From contig JABURQ010000044.1 of NCBI GenBank assembly GCA_014762625.1, positions 1-64,000 of the forward strand: 64,000 nt of DNA, written 5' to 3'. Below are positions 7,054 to 13,756 of this stretch, in pieces (within the stretch, counting starts at the first letter, position 1; the number at the start of each line of letters is the position of its first letter). A model generated the notes under the pieces. The model was not told where the DNA came from. It did no database searches and saw nothing but the letters and a program-made list of their open reading frames with translations. Both the position numbers and the translations under genes were made by a program. The DNA comes from Planctomycetaceae bacterium (GTDB lineage Bacteria > Planctomycetota > Planctomycetia > Planctomycetales > Planctomycetaceae).

Positions 7054-7851
7054 GTGTCGGGTCACGAACCTTTGTCGTCGGACGATCTCGCGGAACTGGT
7101 CCGTGAGACCTTTCTGCGGGATGTTTTACGATTCGATGAGACCGATTCGACCAACACCCAGGCTCTCGCGCTCATTGCGGCAGGAGAAACTCTCGAAACC
7201 CCTCACCTCATCTACGCCGAATCCCAAACGGGAGGCCGCGGTCGCGGCGGCAACGTCTGGTGGTCGCAACCGGGGAGCCTGACGTTTTCGGTCATCGTCA
7301 ACGCCGCCGAACTTGGCATCTCTCCCGAACAACAACCGCAACTTTCCCTCCTCACCGGCATCTCGTTATTACGAACCGGACAAGCCATTCTTCCGCGGGC
7401 CGACTTCGCCGTCAAATGGCCCAACGACGTCTATCTCTCGGGTCGCAAGCTGGCCGGTATCCTGACGGAAGTCCCGCCGCAATCGTTTCAGCATGCGGTC
7501 ATCGGCGTCGGCCTGAACGTGAATAACGAGTTCCATTCCGCTCCCGCTGAACTTCAACACACGGGCATTTCGCTCGCCGACCTTTCCGGACGTCCGCATT
7601 CACGCCGCGAGATCCTGAAACAGTTTCTGCAACATCTGGACGCGCTGTTCCAGTCTCTCTCTCGAGGGGAACCGGTTCTCGAAGAGTGGCCCGAGCATTG
7701 CCTGCTGACCGGCAAGACCGTCACAATTCAGGCCGGACCGAACGAAGTTCGCGGCGTCTGCCGCGGCATCGACGAGTCGGGCGCGCTGCTGGTGGAAACC
7801 CGAGACGGCCTGGAAACAATGCTGGGAGGCGTGGTGGCGCGTTGGGAGTGA
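7054..7851 (+). CDS. birA: biotin--[biotin carboxyl-carrier protein] ligase
   Basis: 265 residues. Motifs of the biotin protein ligase catalytic domain are clear: GGRGRGGNVWWSQPGSL (adenylate loop) and KWPNDVYLSGRKLAGIL. A C-terminal SH3-like part follows (GKTVTIQ...GVCRGIDESGALL). There is no N-terminal winged helix, so this is a class I ligase that cannot act as the DNA-binding biotin repressor. It starts with GTG at 7054, 5 bp after pyc, pointing to pyruvate carboxylase as a main substrate. The enzyme makes biotinyl-AMP and transfers biotin to the MKM lysine. Confidence 0.95.
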   Translation: MSGHEPLSSDDLAELVRETFLRDVLRFDETDSTNTQALALIAAGETLETPHLIYAESQTGGRGRGGNVWWSQPGSLTFSVIVNAAELGISPEQQPQLSLLTGISLLRTGQAILPRADFAVKWPNDVYLSGRKLAGILTEVPPQSFQHAVIGVGLNVNNEFHSAPAELQHTGISLADLSGRPHSRREILKQFLQHLDALFQSLSRGEPVLEEWPEHCLLTGKTVTIQAGPNEVRGVCRGIDESGALLVETRDGLETMLGGVVARWE

Positions 7852-8333
7852 GAGAATCGGGAAACGGGATTCAGGAGACAGATATTAGTGATGTGACCTC
7901 CCTGTTTTTCGCTAGTTGCTAATTGCCAGTTTCTAGTTTCTTCTTGGCAACTGACCACGAACCACTGACGACTAACAAAAATCTAAATTGCCAAAGATCG
8001 AACCTCGAACGCTAACTCTGGTACGCAGGAAACGGCGAGGTCAAATTTGTAGGGTCCGCTGTGAGGACCGTTGTGTTTGACGCAAAGTCAATGAGACGCT
8101 GAGAAACGCAAAGTAAGTAATGAACACGGTTGATACAAAATCGGAAACTCACGGAAGAAAGTGTACCTAGACTTATCACCATCGAAGACTACTCAACACT
8201 TGCACGATCAGGATGTGATTTCCTGTGAGTTCGCCACCAGGCGGATTGTCCGGGCATCGATGAAGGTGCAGAGGAATGTGACCCGACTCACCGGCGAGAG
8301 CGGTGTGAAAAAATCCACCGCAATCCCGTTCGG
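7852..8333. other. intergenic stretch with short repeats and half of a duplicated flank
   Basis: No convincing gene. A small inverted repeat GGTCC (8053-8057) / GGACC (8065-8069) and repeated ACGCAAAG words near 8080-8120 are of the dispersed kind. Segment 8192-8238 is about 81% identical to 11066-11112, and 8245-8333 resembles 11651-11735; both belong to the duplication described for the secreted-protein paralogs. Confidence 0.6.
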
Positions 8334-9152
8334 CTATTTTCCGACAGATTTCTTGGCGGTATTGTTGATCGCGGCTTGCTCATCTGAGGTGATTAAGCCA
8401 GCTTTCTCCAGTTCGCGTGACAGCTTGCGTACATCGCTAAGAAACTTTCCATCGCTGGGAGCGCTGGCTGAGAATTCTGTAATCGTTTTGGTGATTGTGG
8501 AACCTTCGTATTCGAAGTCTTCGACGCCCGTATTGAGACCGCCAATGATGATCGTCGTCGGGACCGGGACGAAAGTATCGACGCTGTAGAACGCTTCGGA
8601 GGTGACCCCGAAAACGCTGTCCCAATCACGAATAATGACTATCGGTTCGTCCCCTGCGAGTGGATTCCAGTCGGTCAATTCAGCCAGTCCGTCCGAATCG
8701 GGATTATTATAGATCCTGCTGGACAGCAGGATATCTTTCGACCAGCCATTTCCAGAGATGTAATTCCGGACTGTCCCGCGTTGAACGGAATCGTACTGAT
8801 CATCGATCAGGAAGTAATCCTCTATCGTGAGAAATGTCGTTCCACCGTCGATCGTATTTCCCGTCATGTATCCGCTGTTGGTAACTCCATCGATGGTCGC
8901 ATCGGGATTCCTCCACTGGCCATATTGGCCGAACTTATCGTAATCGCTCACATCATTAAGAATGATCGGCGCTGCCTCATAGTTGATCGTGATGGTCCCC
9001 TGCACGGCTGTCCCGAACTGCTCTACATTCGGCCCCCGAGTGAACAAGAGCGTTGCGGAATACTCATATTCGGTCACCTGAGCTTGAGTTTCAGCAGTAA
9101 ACATCGGGGTCAACACAAGTAAGAAAAGCAAGAGGGGTCGTAAGCCTAGCAT
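8334..9152 (-). CDS. secreted protein of unknown function, paralog A
   Basis: 272 residues counted from MLGLRPLLLF at 9152; the upstream in-frame ATG at 9197 is less likely because the paralog starts at the equivalent MLGL. A signal peptide of about 22 residues ends at ETQAQ. The mature part is rich in beta-forming and Asp/Gly residues, with a highly charged C-terminus (SDGKFLSDVRKLSRELEK). No catalytic motif or known domain was recognised, and there is no PEP-CTERM tail. It is about 90% identical in protein to the gene at 11736-12551, and 364 bp inside (8618-8981) are identical in DNA to the paralog. Confidence 0.75.
   Translation of the reverse strand: MLGLRPLLLFLLVLTPMFTAETQAQVTEYEYSATLLFTRGPNVEQFGTAVQGTITINYEAAPIILNDVSDYDKFGQYGQWRNPDATIDGVTNSGYMTGNTIDGGTTFLTIEDYFLIDDQYDSVQRGTVRNYISGNGWSKDILLSSRIYNNPDSDGLAELTDWNPLAGDEPIVIIRDWDSVFGVTSEAFYSVDTFVPVPTTIIIGGLNTGVEDFEYEGSTITKTITEFSASAPSDGKFLSDVRKLSRELEKAGLITSDEQAAINNTAKKSVGK
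8618..8981. repeat. 364-bp block identical to 12017-12380
   Basis: Compared base by base, 8618-8981 and 12017-12380 match without a difference at a constant offset of 3399. The next 169 bp to the start codon contain about 21 substitutions (about 12%), and the other end also diverges and has a 3-nt length difference. This is the pattern left by gene conversion or a recent exchange between paralogs. Confidence 0.9.
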
Positions 9153-9515
9153 CGAGTCTCCTCCGCGCTGAGGATAAAATGATGAGAAACGCGGCAATGA
9201 GCATCACCGCCCTAGATAATGATCTCAAGCTAAGCGTCTATACCTCTGGTTGTCAATATGAATTTTAAATGCACCAAGAGGATCTTTGTCAGCCACAGCC
9301 TGACCTACTGGACTTATTGCCGGTTAGTTCGAAGTTTAAAACACAATAGGCTTTTGCACGGACAATAAGCATTCTATCAATTCGGACACCTGATTGAAAA
9401 ATGTAGCAATGTGATGCTGGTATTTAGCGTTGCTACACCTCAGGGTCCTTAGTGAAGGTAATTCCTGTTGCAACTCGCGAACTTGATCAATACTCAAGAA
9501 ATCACCGCGGGGTGG

Positions 9516-9535
9516 CCCAGCCGCACTCGGCTGGG
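9516..9535. repeat. REP-like inverted repeat
   Basis: Eight-base perfect stem CCCAGCCG / CGGCTGGG around CACT, with GGTGG before and GTCGC after. No T-run follows, so it is more likely a dispersed palindrome than a terminator. Confidence 0.6.
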
Positions 9536-9571
9536 TCGCGTATGCGACAAGAATCAGACATCATCATTCAG

Positions 9572-9610
9572 TCAAGTCAGGCAGATCAAGAACAGTTCGC
9601 ACCCGCAGGA
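9572..9610 (+). repeat. 39-bp direct repeat, copy 1 (left of the GNAT gene)
   Basis: Matches 10309-10347 in 35 of 39 positions, same orientation. The two copies bracket the acetyltransferase gene. They share the core CAAGAACAGTTC, which includes the small palindrome GAACAGTTC. Confidence 0.75.
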
Positions 9611-9633
9611 TGGGGAGATTCTTGTGACTGACA

Positions 9634-10233
9634 TCACCCAACCGATCTATCGATCGGTTCGGGCCACCCTGCGGTACTGGGCTCTTTCCATTCATCTTCG
9701 AGCATGGCATAAATGTAGTCGTCAATCCACTTACCCTCTACAAGATTCGCATGCACAAAATGTGCCTCGCGACGCATGCCGACACGTTCCATTAAACGCC
9801 ACGATTGCTCGTTGCGCGCATCAACACCTGCGATGATTCGATGTAAATTCAGTCGCGTAAATCCATAACCAAGCGCCGCATGGACGGTTTTTGTGGCGAA
9901 TCCGTGACCCGAAAACAAAGGATTGAAGGTAAAGCCGATTTCACCTTGTCGATCCTGCACACTGTTTATGGTGATTTGACAGTCTCCGATCACCTTCTTC
10001 TCAGCGAGAAGTACTGCGACCAGAACGAATGGGACACCTGGATCTCCGACAAACACGTCCGATTGCGAATACACGAATTGTTCGACTTGCTCCATCGTCC
10101 ATGGTGTAAAGAACTGATATCGAGCAACATCGGGATTGGAGTAGATTTCGAAAAGGTCTGTCGCGTCACTATATTCCAATCGCCGCAGCATTAAATCATC
10201 TACTTCGATCGGCAGTCCGTCATCGTTAGTCAT
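9634..10233 (-). CDS. GNAT-family N-acetyltransferase (RimJ/RimL-like)
   Basis: 199 residues from MTNDDGLP (10233); an in-frame upstream ATG at 10308 would add 25 residues that do not look like the family. The opening LMLRRLEYSDATDLFEIYSNPDVARY is the usual start of the RimJ/RimL-type acetyltransferases. The middle has GEIGFTFNPLFSGHGFATKTVHAALGYGF (split here: GHGFATK is the acetyl-CoA loop), followed by LNLHRIIAGVDARNEQSWRLM and MRREAHF. It transfers acetyl from acetyl-CoA to an amine; the substrate may be a protein N-terminus or a small molecule. It is bracketed by 39-bp direct repeats, so it may have moved as a unit. Confidence 0.85.
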   Translation of the reverse strand: MTNDDGLPIEVDDLMLRRLEYSDATDLFEIYSNPDVARYQFFTPWTMEQVEQFVYSQSDVFVGDPGVPFVLVAVLLAEKKVIGDCQITINSVQDRQGEIGFTFNPLFSGHGFATKTVHAALGYGFTRLNLHRIIAGVDARNEQSWRLMERVGMRREAHFVHANLVEGKWIDDYIYAMLEDEWKEPSTAGWPEPIDRSVG

Positions 10234-10308
10234 GAGTCGAGGTCTCTCAGGCACAAACCGGGAAAGCAAGTCACAACGTGACCAGAAACTTATAACAAAA
10301 TCGTGCAA

Positions 10309-10347
10309 TCAAGTGAGGCAGACCAAGAACAGTTCACACCCGCACGA
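10309..10347 (+). repeat. 39-bp direct repeat, copy 2 (right of the GNAT gene)
   Basis: Partner of 9572-9610, 90% identical, about 737 bp apart in direct orientation. Confidence 0.75.
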
Positions 10348-10424
10348 ACTCTTATTCCTGACGGCACTCGACCAAAATCAATTTTGGACGGGCCACACTG
10401 TGGACTAGTGCTTTGCCCGGCAAT

Positions 10425-11066
10425 TCATTCTTCATCTCGATAAGGCTGTTTGGCCTCATAGGCTGCCAACTGGGTCTGCATCTGTGTTGTTCGTTCGCGT
10501 CGGCGTTTTGCAGCCTGTTCGTTTTTCGGTTCCGGCAAGTCCTCCAGTTGCTGAAGCGCCCGTTTCTGAGCGGCCACCGCCTCATCAAACTCGCCGATTT
10601 CCGCGTAAGCTGCGGCCAGTGTCTTCCGATCTTTGGTCTTTTTGGCCAGTTTCAAAGCCAATGGGCCGTCTCGGTATTTCGCCTCCGGGCAGGTGGCGAG
10701 TTGCCACGCCCAGGCATTCAACAGATTCGGGTCATCCGGGGTTCGATCATACGCCGCCGCAAAATCAGCATGGGCTTGGGCGTATTTCTTGAGTTCGTGA
10801 TAGGCACACGCCCGGCGGTATCGAACCATTCTGATTTCCGGATCCAGACGCAACGCCGCCGTATAGTCATCAGCCGCTTGCAGTTGATCGTTTTTATGCC
10901 ACTGGTAAATCCGTCCGCGGTAGTGATAGGCATGTGCGCGGGCCTCATTGGCAGACACCCAAACCGCCGCCTGTCCAATCGTATCTGCTACTGGCTTGGT
11001 TGTCACATTATTTTCTGTGTGACGGGTGGTGTATGTTTGCGGGTACGAACTTCCCCTGGACACCAC
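10425..11066 (-). CDS. TPR-repeat protein, probably 5'-truncated
   Basis: 213 residues with two or three tetratricopeptide repeats (for example AHAYHYRGRIYQWHK...AADDYTAALRLDPE and MVRYRRACAYHELKKYAQAHADF). A tail follows, LNAWAWQLATCPEAKYRDG...LAAAYAEIGEFDEAVAAQKRAL, ending KQPYRDEE. This is the C-terminal end seen in many much longer planctomycete TPR or kinase-TPR proteins. There is no signal peptide or kinase domain here, and the only starts are a GTG at 11066 inside a repeated sequence or later internal codons. The segment between the RDG and LAAAYAE parts looks shortened relative to what I remember of the family. I regard it as a remnant that may not be expressed. Confidence 0.55.
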   Translation of the reverse strand: MVSRGSSYPQTYTTRHTENNVTTKPVADTIGQAAVWVSANEARAHAYHYRGRIYQWHKNDQLQAADDYTAALRLDPEIRMVRYRRACAYHELKKYAQAHADFAAAYDRTPDDPNLLNAWAWQLATCPEAKYRDGPLALKLAKKTKDRKTLAAAYAEIGEFDEAVAAQKRALQQLEDLPEPKNEQAAKRRRERTTQMQTQLAAYEAKQPYRDEE

Positions 11067-11112
11067 TCAAAAGTGGCACGATCATGAAATGATCTCCTGC
11101 GAGTTCGTCACC
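11066..11112 (+). repeat. 47-bp sequence also found at 8192-8238
   Basis: About 38 of 47 bases match the segment at 8192-8238. In the first locus the next homologous block follows within about 8 bp; here it is 538 bp away, so a segment holding two small ORFs separates the two halves. Confidence 0.7.
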
Positions 11113-11650
11113 CGGACGTTATTCTCGTGTTGTTTCAGGATTGCCCCCGCCCATTCTATCAGATCCGATGTTAACGCCCTTTTGATAAGGAGACTCATGG
11201 ATATCATCATTCTTATACTTGTTGGGTTTGGAATTGTCGGTTCCATCGAAAGTCGAATTCGACCGTTGCTCAAGAATCAGGAATTTGAACTTCGTCAGTT
11301 GAAAACTTCCGTTGAACGACTCGAGCAAAAACTGGAGACCATCCTGGGAAAACTCGGCGATGAATGACTCAGAAAAAGGCTAAAATTCTCAAGAAGTAAG
11401 TGATTGTTGCAGTTCGATCACGCCTCTCTACCTGGACAAGACAATGCACTCATCTTCTGGAGCTTCCTATGGACTCACCCTTGAGAATTCTGATCTCGGT
11501 CGTCTGCCTCGCCGTGGCCGCCTGTTGCGTATATGGGTTCATGGCATCTTTCGAACCGGGGATCGGTGCCGTTTGGAAAATTGGATATGCCGCGGTTGGC
11601 ATTTCCAGTCTGGGATTTTCCGTCTCCCATGGCTTATCGCAGGGACAATG
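11113..11650. mobile_element. 538-bp segment inserted in (or lost from) the duplicated flank
   Basis: Inferred by comparing the flanks of the two secreted-protein paralogs. The junctions carry an 8-bp inverted repeat, CCCGGACG at 11111-11118 and CGTCCGGG at 11653-11660. The segment contains two short ORFs, each with a ribosome site. No transposase is present; it could be a MITE-like or cassette-like insertion, or the ancestral state with a deletion in the other copy. Confidence 0.4.
11197..11367 (+). CDS. small membrane-anchored coiled-coil protein (56 aa)
   Basis: ATG at 11197 is preceded by an AAGGAG ribosome site at 11188-11193. The N-terminus MDIIILILVGFGIVG is a membrane helix, and the rest (ELRQLKTSVERLEQKLETIL) is an amphipathic coiled coil. 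This layout of one short helix plus a coiled coil is common in small bacterial membrane proteins and phage-like modules, but I recognise no family. It lies in the 538-bp segment absent from the other copy of the duplication. Confidence 0.6.
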   Translation: MDIIILILVGFGIVGSIESRIRPLLKNQEFELRQLKTSVERLEQKLETILGKLGDE

Positions 11651-11651
11651 A
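11469..11651 (+). CDS. small integral membrane protein (60 aa)
   Basis: ATG at 11469 has CTGGAG at 11456-11461 upstream. The 60 residues form two hydrophobic helices (ILISVVCLAVAACCVYGFM and WKIGYAAVGISSLGFSV) and a short tail SHGLSQGQ. Function unknown. It is the second ORF of the extra segment and ends exactly at its right junction. Confidence 0.55.
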   Translation: MDSPLRILISVVCLAVAACCVYGFMASFEPGIGAVWKIGYAAVGISSLGFSVSHGLSQGQ

Positions 11652-11735
11652 TCGTCCGGGCCAGCTACGAAGGTTCAGAGCGATGTGATTCGACTCACCG
11701 GGGGCCGGATAAATAAACGTCACAATTCCGTTTGG

Positions 11736-12551
11736 CTATTTCCCCACAGATTGCTCGGCCGTGCTGTTGATTGCGTCTTGCTGATCTGAGGTGATTAAAC
11801 CGTCTTTCTCCAGTTCGCGCGTCAGCTTGCGAACATCGCTGAGGAACTTCCCGTCGCTGGGGGAACTGGTCGAGAATGAAGCAATCGTTTCAGTGATCGT
11901 GACACCTTCAAACTCGAAATCTTCGACGCCCGTGTCGAAACCGCCGATGATGATCGTCGTCGGGACCGGGGCGAAAGTATCGACGCTGTAGAACGCTTCG
12001 GAGGTTCCGGTAACGATGTCCCAATCACGAATAATGACTATCGGTTCGTCCCCTGCGAGTGGATTCCAGTCGGTCAATTCAGCCAGTCCGTCCGAATCGG
12101 GATTATTATAGATCCTGCTGGACAGCAGGATATCTTTCGACCAGCCATTTCCAGAGATGTAATTCCGGACTGTCCCGCGTTGAACGGAATCGTACTGATC
12201 ATCGATCAGGAAGTAATCCTCTATCGTGAGAAATGTCGTTCCACCGTCGATCGTATTTCCCGTCATGTATCCGCTGTTGGTAACTCCATCGATGGTCGCA
12301 TCGGGATTCCTCCACTGGCCATATTGGCCGAACTTATCGTAATCGCTCACATCATTAAGAATGATCGGCGCTGCCTCATACTTGATCGTGACGGTTCCTT
12401 GAACGGCAGTGCCGAATTGCTCTACATTCGGTCCCCGCGTGAATAAGAGTGTTGCGGAATACTCATATTCGGTCACCTGAGCCTGAGTTTCAGCCGTGAA
12501 CGTCGGGCTCAACACCAGTAAGAAAAGCAAGAAGCGCCGTAAGCCTAGCAT
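11736..12551 (-). CDS. secreted protein of unknown function, paralog B
   Basis: 271 residues, same layout as the gene at 8334-9152: signal peptide ending ETQAQ, beta-rich body, and charged tail (SDGKFLSDVRKLTRELEKDG). The central third is identical to paralog A at both DNA and protein level. Differences are concentrated in the signal peptide region and the last 90 residues, including a one-residue shortening around IVTGTSEAF. Both copies have intact frames, so both may be functional. No enzyme motif seen. Confidence 0.75.
   Translation of the reverse strand: MLGLRRFLLFLLVLSPTFTAETQAQVTEYEYSATLLFTRGPNVEQFGTAVQGTVTIKYEAAPIILNDVSDYDKFGQYGQWRNPDATIDGVTNSGYMTGNTIDGGTTFLTIEDYFLIDDQYDSVQRGTVRNYISGNGWSKDILLSSRIYNNPDSDGLAELTDWNPLAGDEPIVIIRDWDIVTGTSEAFYSVDTFAPVPTTIIIGGFDTGVEDFEFEGVTITETIASFSTSSPSDGKFLSDVRKLTRELEKDGLITSDQQDAINSTAEQSVGK
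12017..12380. repeat. 364-bp block identical to 8618-8981
   Basis: Partner of the identical tract in paralog A; see that entry for the comparison of divergence inside and outside the block. Confidence 0.9.
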
Positions 12552-12757
12552 CGAGTCTCCTCAGCGCTGAGGTGAAATGATGAGAAGCGTGGCGGTGCAC
12601 ATCAACGCCAAAAGTGATGATCTCAAGCTAAGCGTCTATACCTCGTCTGTCAATATGAATTTTAAATGCACCAAGAGGCTCTTTGTCAGTCACAGCCTGA
12701 CCGATATCTCATCCGTGCCATCCGCAATTTCTCAACACACCCTCTTGTGCTGACGCA

Positions 12758-12780
12758 CCCCGTTTGGCGAGCAAACGGGG
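12758..12780. repeat. hairpin downstream of the FtsQ-like gene
   Basis: CCCCGTTTG at 12758-12766 pairs with CAAACGGGG at 12772-12780 around GCGAG. It follows the leftward FtsQ-like gene by about 30 bp and could help terminate it, but there is no T-run. The CAAACGGGGCTACCC word suggests a dispersed element. Confidence 0.55.
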
Positions 12781-12808
12781 CTACCCTTCGCGTCTTCGTG
12801 CTACACCA

Positions 12809-13756
12809 TCAGAACTTTTCTTTCGGCAACTGAGCGTCGTGGGAAGCGGGGATCTGTTTGCGGGAGATTTGTTGCCATTGCCGGATGTCGATCTCGTACG
12901 GTCCCGCGGGGGCGTCGAAGCTGCCGTAGTCGGCGAGATAGGTTTTCATGCGGTCGATTTTCTGCGTGACCGTCAGTTCCTTCTCGTGTTTGACGCCGGG
13001 TGCACGGCCCCAGAGAATTGTCGAGCCGGACGAGGTGAGCAGTGAGAACTGGGCGTCCTGCAATTTGATCTCTTCGGTGGTGCGCGGAGGGACGCGGATC
13101 GAACGCAGATCGAGTGTCTGCCAGTCGGTTCGCAAAGCGGCGGCAATGCGTGCCGCTCCCTGCACCAGCGGATCGTCCCAGACTTCGCCCTGAAGCGACG
13201 GCGGGGTCGAACGGACGCCGGTGATAGCGGGATAGTCGGCTGTTGCGGAGAGTGAGAAATCCTCTTTCGGCAGCAGGACGCCGGACGCATCGACGGGATA
13301 GAGCCCCGTTCTTTTTTCGATCATGGCGACCGGACGCCGGTAGTCGAGCGTGACCACCAAACGCGCGGGAAAGGAGGCTTTGCGGACTTCCTTGACCTCG
13401 GCGACCCAGGGATGCCGGGCGAACAGCTTGGCGATTTCGAGGGTGAGGCTCTCATCGAGCAACGACATCTCCTCGGGAAAGCCGACCCGTTCGACCGCGT
13501 CCTCGACAAATTCGTGAGGCACCCAATGGGGCGGCTCGTTCACTTCGATGTCGGCGACCGTCACTCGGTATTCGGGATTTTGCGTCAAATCGGGGAGGTT
13601 GGCTTGAAGCATGGGCCAGAAGATGACCGCGCAGACCAACAGCGCCGCCGTCATCAACGGTTTGGGGCGGAAGACAGCGCGAACCACGCGCACCCAGCGT
13701 CGCTGGGGAGTCTCTGGCTTGGGGGACTTTTTGTCGAGTTTGTCCTTGTCGGTCAT
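12809..13756 (-). CDS. FtsQ/DivIB-like POTRA membrane protein
   Basis: 315 residues from ATG at 13756; an upstream open frame to 14134 lacks protein-like sequence. Layout: charged cytoplasmic tail (1-33), one membrane helix (34-53), a POTRA-like domain (about 65-143, including HPWVAEVKEVRKASFPARLVV and YRRPVAMIE), then GLYPVDASGVLLP. That sequence and order are those of the divisome proteins FtsQ/DivIB, which scaffold FtsB/FtsL and septal synthesis in other bacteria. Planctomycetia are generally reported to lack FtsZ, so its role here may be in wall synthesis or a modified division machine. The HD-domain gene lies upstream in the same direction with a 182-bp gap. Confidence 0.75.
   Translation of the reverse strand: MTDKDKLDKKSPKPETPQRRWVRVVRAVFRPKPLMTAALLVCAVIFWPMLQANLPDLTQNPEYRVTVADIEVNEPPHWVPHEFVEDAVERVGFPEEMSLLDESLTLEIAKLFARHPWVAEVKEVRKASFPARLVVTLDYRRPVAMIEKRTGLYPVDASGVLLPKEDFSLSATADYPAITGVRSTPPSLQGEVWDDPLVQGAARIAAALRTDWQTLDLRSIRVPPRTTEEIKLQDAQFSLLTSSGSTILWGRAPGVKHEKELTVTQKIDRMKTYLADYGSFDAPAGPYEIDIRQWQQISRKQIPASHDAQLPKEKF

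What the first reader, a model, noticed from the sequence alone, without database searches (positions are those of the whole stretch)
8334..12551. Two secreted-protein paralogs share a 364-bp perfectly identical core: gene-conversion tract
Paralog genes 3.4 kb apart differ by about 12% just upstream of the core and also in the last third, yet 8618-8981 and 12017-12380 are identical without exception. Sharp borders between 0% and about 12% divergence are typical of conversion. It implies ongoing exchange, perhaps to keep the core constant while the ends diversify, or as an antigenic-variation-like shuffle of a secreted protein.
Basis: seen in the sequence. Interest (0 to 1): 0.68.

Follow-up and report, generated by a model that had tools for sequence, protein, structure and literature searches.

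The report
Gene-conversion tract between two paralogs
Two neighbouring copies of a secreted-protein gene share an identical middle, most likely because one copy recently overwrote the other there, an ordinary kind of copy-to-copy DNA exchange with no sign of an antigen-switching system.

Summary
Window 8618-8981 and 12017-12380 are identical over 364 bp. The paralogs differ by 12.3% in the coding sequence before the core and 16.7% after it. Silent divergence is 0.47 and 0.53 on either side, but 0 differences over 79 synonymous sites inside. No shuffle of 20,000 gave a run above 124. Constraint is a poor explanation: in two distant relatives the core is not the best conserved part, it shows no unusual RNA fold or Rfam hit, and an antisense frame is broken in copy 2. 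Best reading: one recent ectopic gene conversion, whose downstream border meets a mismatch cluster with a 3-nt gap. Direction is unresolved. Assembly collapse of a nearly identical core cannot be excluded. The antigenic-variation idea is not supported: only two copies, both intact, under purifying selection, no silent cassettes. The pair lies in a slot that in two congeners holds a GDPD gene. An ordinary, clean example of a known process.

The parts
8334..9152 (-). copy 1: secreted-protein gene, 272 aa, signal-peptide-like N-terminus (by eye), no Pfam/NCBIfam match above cut-off
11736..12551 (-). copy 2: paralog, 271 aa, 91% protein identity to copy 1
8618..8981 (-). identical core in copy 1 (codons 58-178): proposed conversion tract
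12017..12380 (-). identical core in copy 2 (codons 58-178): proposed conversion tract
8604..8617 (-). downstream border: cluster of mismatches with a 3-nt gap, next to the end of the tract (copy 2 counterpart 12006-12016)
8545..8603 (-). 59 bp with one mismatch just beyond the border; possible older or patchy second tract (weak)
   Evidence: runs of 34 and 24 (P 0.027 for the longest run in that flank); codons 184-206 have 1 silent difference in 21 against 31 in 101 elsewhere outside the core, Fisher 0.013, unadjusted
8244..9305 (-). copy 1 of the duplicated unit, with shared upstream region
   Evidence: 89% identity to 11650-12702
11650..12702 (-). copy 2 of the duplicated unit
9288..9305 (-). 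REP-like palindrome GGTCAGGCTGTGGCTGAC at the upstream edge of unit 1
12685..12702 (-). REP-like palindrome GGTCAGGCTGTGACTGAC at the upstream edge of unit 2

Best explanation
The two genes arose by a duplication of about 1.05 kb and diverged for a long time (silent divergence about 0.5). Recently, homologous recombination between the two direct copies, 3.4 kb apart on one chromosome or on sister chromosomes, copied one gene's middle over the other's: an ectopic gene conversion tract of at least 364 bp. Shown: identical core, sharp borders, full silent-site identity inside, and divergence outside. Inferred: RecA-type strand exchange (recA was not looked for), non-reciprocal transfer, a single event, and termination at the mismatch/gap cluster on the downstream side. 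Which copy was donor cannot be told. The event is recent relative to the duplication: with 0 of 79 silent sites changed, the 95% upper bound is 3.7% against about 50% outside. No function of the homogeneity is demonstrated.
For: Exact 364-bp identity with different bases on both sides. dS 0.47 / 0 of 79 sites / 0.53 across the gene. Shuffle test and union bound. Silent-codon test: 120 successive silent-identical codons, no shuffle of 100,000 above 92. dN 0.048 and 0.107 in the flanks against dS about 0.5, so the copies look to be under purifying selection. The downstream border falls on a cluster of mismatches with a gap, as expected if heterology stops processive conversion; in Salmonella tuf genes conversion was processive, with a fitted mean walk of about 500 nt each way, and was blocked by a large heterologous insert (PMC5485169, passages and section 7 read).
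Against: The genome is a 208-contig draft of unknown read type; I have no reads, so the core could be near-identical rather than identical. No congener carries the gene (1 of 3 genus genomes has it, the window's own), so there is no orthologue to polarise the event or to show concerted evolution directly. No GENECONV program was run, only my own permutation tests.
Confidence: 0.85

Rival explanations
1. Assembly artefact: the two cores really differ by a modest number of sites and the assembler merged them into one consensus used twice.
For: Draft of 208 contigs; several copies of a dispersed repeat lie within about 1 kb of contig starts, so repeats probably broke this assembly elsewhere.
Against: At the flanks' divergence about 50 differences would be expected in the core, too many for ordinary merging. 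With two direct copies the order flank-core-spacer-core-flank is the only path through one contig, so flank assignment is not in doubt (reasoning, not a test). Even a merged core would have to be far more alike than the flanks, which again means conversion.
Confidence: 0.08
2. Strong DNA-level constraint (overlapping antisense gene, RNA structure, binding sites) holds the core identical.
For: An antisense frame, 8781-9122, runs through part of the core in copy 1.
Against: That frame has a stop in copy 2. RNA fold z-score -1.14, 15 of 100 shuffles fold as well. No Rfam hit. In two distant relatives the core is not the best conserved part of the protein.
Confidence: 0.02
3. Antigenic-variation-like or contingency shuffle: repeated programmed exchange diversifies a surface protein.
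For: A signal-peptide-like N-terminus (by eye); a possible second short patch at 8545-8603.
Against: Only two copies in the genome, both full length and open; no third copy or long fragment at DNA level. The exchange made the copies more alike. The copies look to be under purifying selection. The known systems described in PMC4534519 (passages) mostly use an expression site fed by silent cassettes.
Confidence: 0.02
4. Import: the identical core came into one or both copies by recombination with DNA of another strain rather than from the neighbouring copy.
For: None directly.
Against: Needs either two imports or one that happens to match the other copy exactly; less simple. Not testable without other strains.
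Confidence: 0.03

Closest known systems
tufA/tufB gene conversion in Salmonella (PMC5485169; passages and section 7 read)
   Same: Two paralogs on one chromosome, processive tract of hundreds of bases, blocked by heterology.
   Different: The tuf copies in the assay differ at 12 positions and conversion was measured; here it is inferred from one genome and the copies are much more diverged.
mtrA-1/mtrA-2 domain-limited conversion in methanogens (PMC4632066; abstract and outline read)
   Same: One part of two paralogs is homogenised while another part differs.
   Different: There it recurs over very long times in many species and the differing part is a separate domain; here one tract in one genome is shown.
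Long-lasting concerted evolution in prokaryotes (PMC6053082; abstract and outline read)
   Same: Paralogs more alike to each other than their history would predict.
   Different: Those are mostly key-pathway genes followed through many species; this is a rare accessory gene without orthologue in its two congeners.
Segmental gene conversion in antigenic variation, e.g. vlsE, pilE (PMC4534519; passages read)
   Same: Short segmental tracts inside a secreted or surface protein gene.
   Different: No silent cassette library found, and the exchange reduces difference here.

Membership tests
Ectopic gene conversion tract between paralogs | Stretch of identity far longer than chance between diverged paralogs | tested here: met
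   364 bp; longest in 20,000 shuffles 124
Ectopic gene conversion tract between paralogs | Silent sites identical inside, diverged outside | tested here: met
   0 of 116 against 33 of 124 degenerate same-residue codons
Ectopic gene conversion tract between paralogs | Paralogs in the tract closer to each other than either to its orthologue | not testable with these tools
   No orthologue in the 2 congeners; nearest full-length relatives 32% and 27% identical
Ectopic gene conversion tract between paralogs | Non-reciprocal transfer (donor unchanged) | not testable with these tools
   Needs the ancestral state of the core in each copy
Antigenic variation by gene conversion | Library of silent or truncated donor copies | tested here: not met
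   Two intact copies only; no other long DNA match in the draft genome
Antigenic variation by gene conversion | Single expression site; donors without promoter | tested here: inconclusive
   Both copies keep about 150 bp upstream, partly at high identity; no convincing sigma-70 match (5 found in the region, 4.3 expected)
Antigenic variation by gene conversion | Exchange generates variants within a population | not testable with these tools
   One genome only

The most novel reading that the evidence does not exclude
Repeated conversion, favoured by selection, keeps the middle of a secreted domain the same in both proteins while a separate C-terminal tail module diverges and gives the two proteins different partners or placement. 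The faster divergence of the C-terminal part (dN 0.107 against 0.048 at the N-terminus) and a possible second patch leave this open.
Probability: 0.08. Interest if true: 0.35.

Novelty: new member of a known kind. Interest (0 to 1): 0.17.

Why it matters
It is a clean natural example of ectopic conversion between paralogs whose flanks are 12-20% diverged. Practically, it warns against using such pairs for dating duplications.

Tried and rejected
Structure: AlphaFold2 on the two-row alignment gave mean pLDDT 33, useless, so no fold search was made. Protein families: nothing above cut-off in Pfam or NCBIfam for the pair and only a chance-level PDB hit. Donor direction from base composition: core GC3 0.57; before it 0.63 (copy 1) and 0.61 (copy 2), after it 0.60 and 0.67; no decision. 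Overlapping antisense gene and RNA structure rejected. The genome-contig scan gave four Oscillospiraceae loci with a partial match of about 32% over residues 145-265; not pursued as homologues. Plasmid searches with a tail module and with copy 1 gave no match. A search of the order returned the same 170-genome set and the same hits as the family search. A paper search on assembly collapse and one on intrachromosomal conversion gave listings that I did not use; of the listing on ectopic conversion I opened one paper. Two translations of L005 and L006 were in the wrong strand or frame and were replaced by ORF lists.

Full report
WHAT WAS CLAIMED. Two secreted-protein paralogs 3.4 kb apart share a 364-bp perfectly identical core between borders of about 12% divergence, read as a gene-conversion tract, perhaps an antigenic-variation-like shuffle.

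OBSERVATION. The core is there exactly: 8618-8981 and 12017-12380 are identical and the next base on each side differs. The genes are 8334-9152 and 11736-12551 on the minus strand, 272 and 271 aa, 91% identical as proteins. Over the alignable unit of 1047 ungapped columns there are 111 mismatches: 40 in 323 columns upstream (12.4%), 0 in 364, and 71 in 360 downstream (19.7%; 16.7% in coding sequence). In 20,000 shuffles of the mismatches the longest run was 124; the union bound for 364 is about 1e-19. This is not chance.

IT IS NOT PROTEIN CONSTRAINT. Silent divergence (Nei-Gojobori with Jukes-Cantor) is 0.467 before the core, zero in 79 synonymous sites within it, and 0.531 after it. Among degenerate codons that keep the residue, 0 of 116 differ in the core against 33 of 124 outside (Fisher 3e-11); the run of 120 silent-identical codons exceeds the maximum of 92 in 100,000 shuffles.

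IT IS NOT OBVIOUSLY DNA- OR RNA-LEVEL CONSTRAINT. There is no Rfam match in 7800-13200. The core folds only slightly better than shuffled sequence (z -1.14, 15 of 100 shuffles as good). The one antisense frame of 100 aa or more through the core in copy 1 has a stop in copy 2. The two full-length relatives (in G158 and G022) match the core at 28% and 24% and the C-terminal part at 40% and 28%, so the core is not the best conserved part of the family. An alignment search of 397 genomes of the class found 3 with a match, own included.

MECHANISM. Direct repeats 3.4 kb apart with long stretches of identity are a substrate for RecA-type recombination. The simplest history is duplication of about 1.05 kb (8244-9305 and 11650-12702), long divergence with both copies apparently under purifying selection (dN 0.048 and 0.107), and then one recent copying of the middle from one to the other. 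The downstream end of the tract meets a cluster of differences with a 3-nt gap at codons 179-183, where heterology could stop strand exchange. In Salmonella tuf genes conversion is processive, with a fitted mean walk of about 500 nt each way, and is blocked by a large heterologous insert (PMC5485169), so 364 bp is an unremarkable length. With 0 of 79 silent sites changed the 95% upper bound on silent divergence since the event is 3.7%, under a tenth of the divergence since duplication. Donor and recipient cannot be told: base composition does not decide and there is no orthologue. RecA-type exchange is inferred from general knowledge; I did not look for recA.

A POSSIBLE SECOND PATCH. Beyond the border, 8545-8603 has one mismatch in 59 bp. 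The longest run in that flank has a permutation P of 0.027, and codons 184-206 have 1 silent difference in 21 against 31 in 101 in the remaining non-core codons (Fisher 0.013, segment chosen after seeing the data; codons 179-183 left out of both sides). This part is also the better conserved part of the protein in relatives (44% and 41% over residues 184-217). I count it as weak.

RESULTS AGAINST. The genome is a 208-contig draft, and repeats probably broke it elsewhere: several copies of a dispersed repeat lie within about 1 kb of contig starts. A merged consensus of two nearly identical cores cannot be excluded without reads. It would change 'perfectly identical' to 'nearly identical' but not the need for conversion. 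I ran permutation tests of my own, not GENECONV.

NOT AN ANTIGEN SHUFFLE. The whole draft genome has two matches to the protein at E <= 10. At DNA level, of 25 matches at E <= 10, the query itself included, the only other long one is the second copy; the next is 57 bp, in the 3' flank, and the rest are at most 35 bp. Systems described in a review (PMC4534519, passages) mostly draw on silent cassettes feeding an expression site. Here exchange made two intact genes more alike.

SURROUNDINGS. The pair sits between a biotin protein ligase gene (Pfam) and a gene at 12809 that I would call FtsQ-like by eye only (no Pfam match). In both congeners these two genes flank a GDPD gene instead, and in window 7800-13200 only the part from 12816 on, at the 12809 gene, gave a DNA match to them. 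So the pair, a GNAT gene, a TPR protein and small ORFs occupy a slot whose content differs in the window's genome. The upstream edge of both duplicated units is a REP-like palindrome found 9 times in the genome and 0 times for the reversed control pattern.

VERDICT. Confirmed and ordinary: a clean conversion tract between two accessory paralogs. Interest 0.17; new member of a known kind.

Noticed in passing
window 9506-9673: Dispersed element of about 170 bp with ends GGGTGGCCC / GGGCCACCC (by eye), 17 matches at E <= 1 in the own genome including itself and a decayed copy at 10300-10347; it overlaps the 3' end of the GNAT ORF that ends at 9634 and seems to supply its last codons. MITE- or REP-like by my reading.
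   Followed up: partly
window 9288-9305 and 12685-12702: REP-like palindrome GGTCAGGCTGTGNCTGAC at the upstream edge of both duplicated units; the looser pattern occurs 9 times in the genome, reversed control 0.
   Followed up: partly
window 8340-8567 and 11742-11969; L006 1501-1731; L007 1384-1614: C-terminal tail of about 75 aa shared with secreted-looking proteins of quite different N-terminal make-up in G159 and G160; no Pfam or NCBIfam match to the tail. Looks like a portable, unnamed C-terminal module.
   Followed up: partly
window 7852-12808; L044, L045: Variable slot between a biotin ligase gene and the gene at 12809: two congeners carry a GDPD gene there instead.
   Followed up: partly
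window 8200-8255, 11076-11130: Another weakly repeated intergenic stretch downstream of copy 1; 82% match on contig C87, and a similar stretch by eye near 11076-11130.
   Followed up: no
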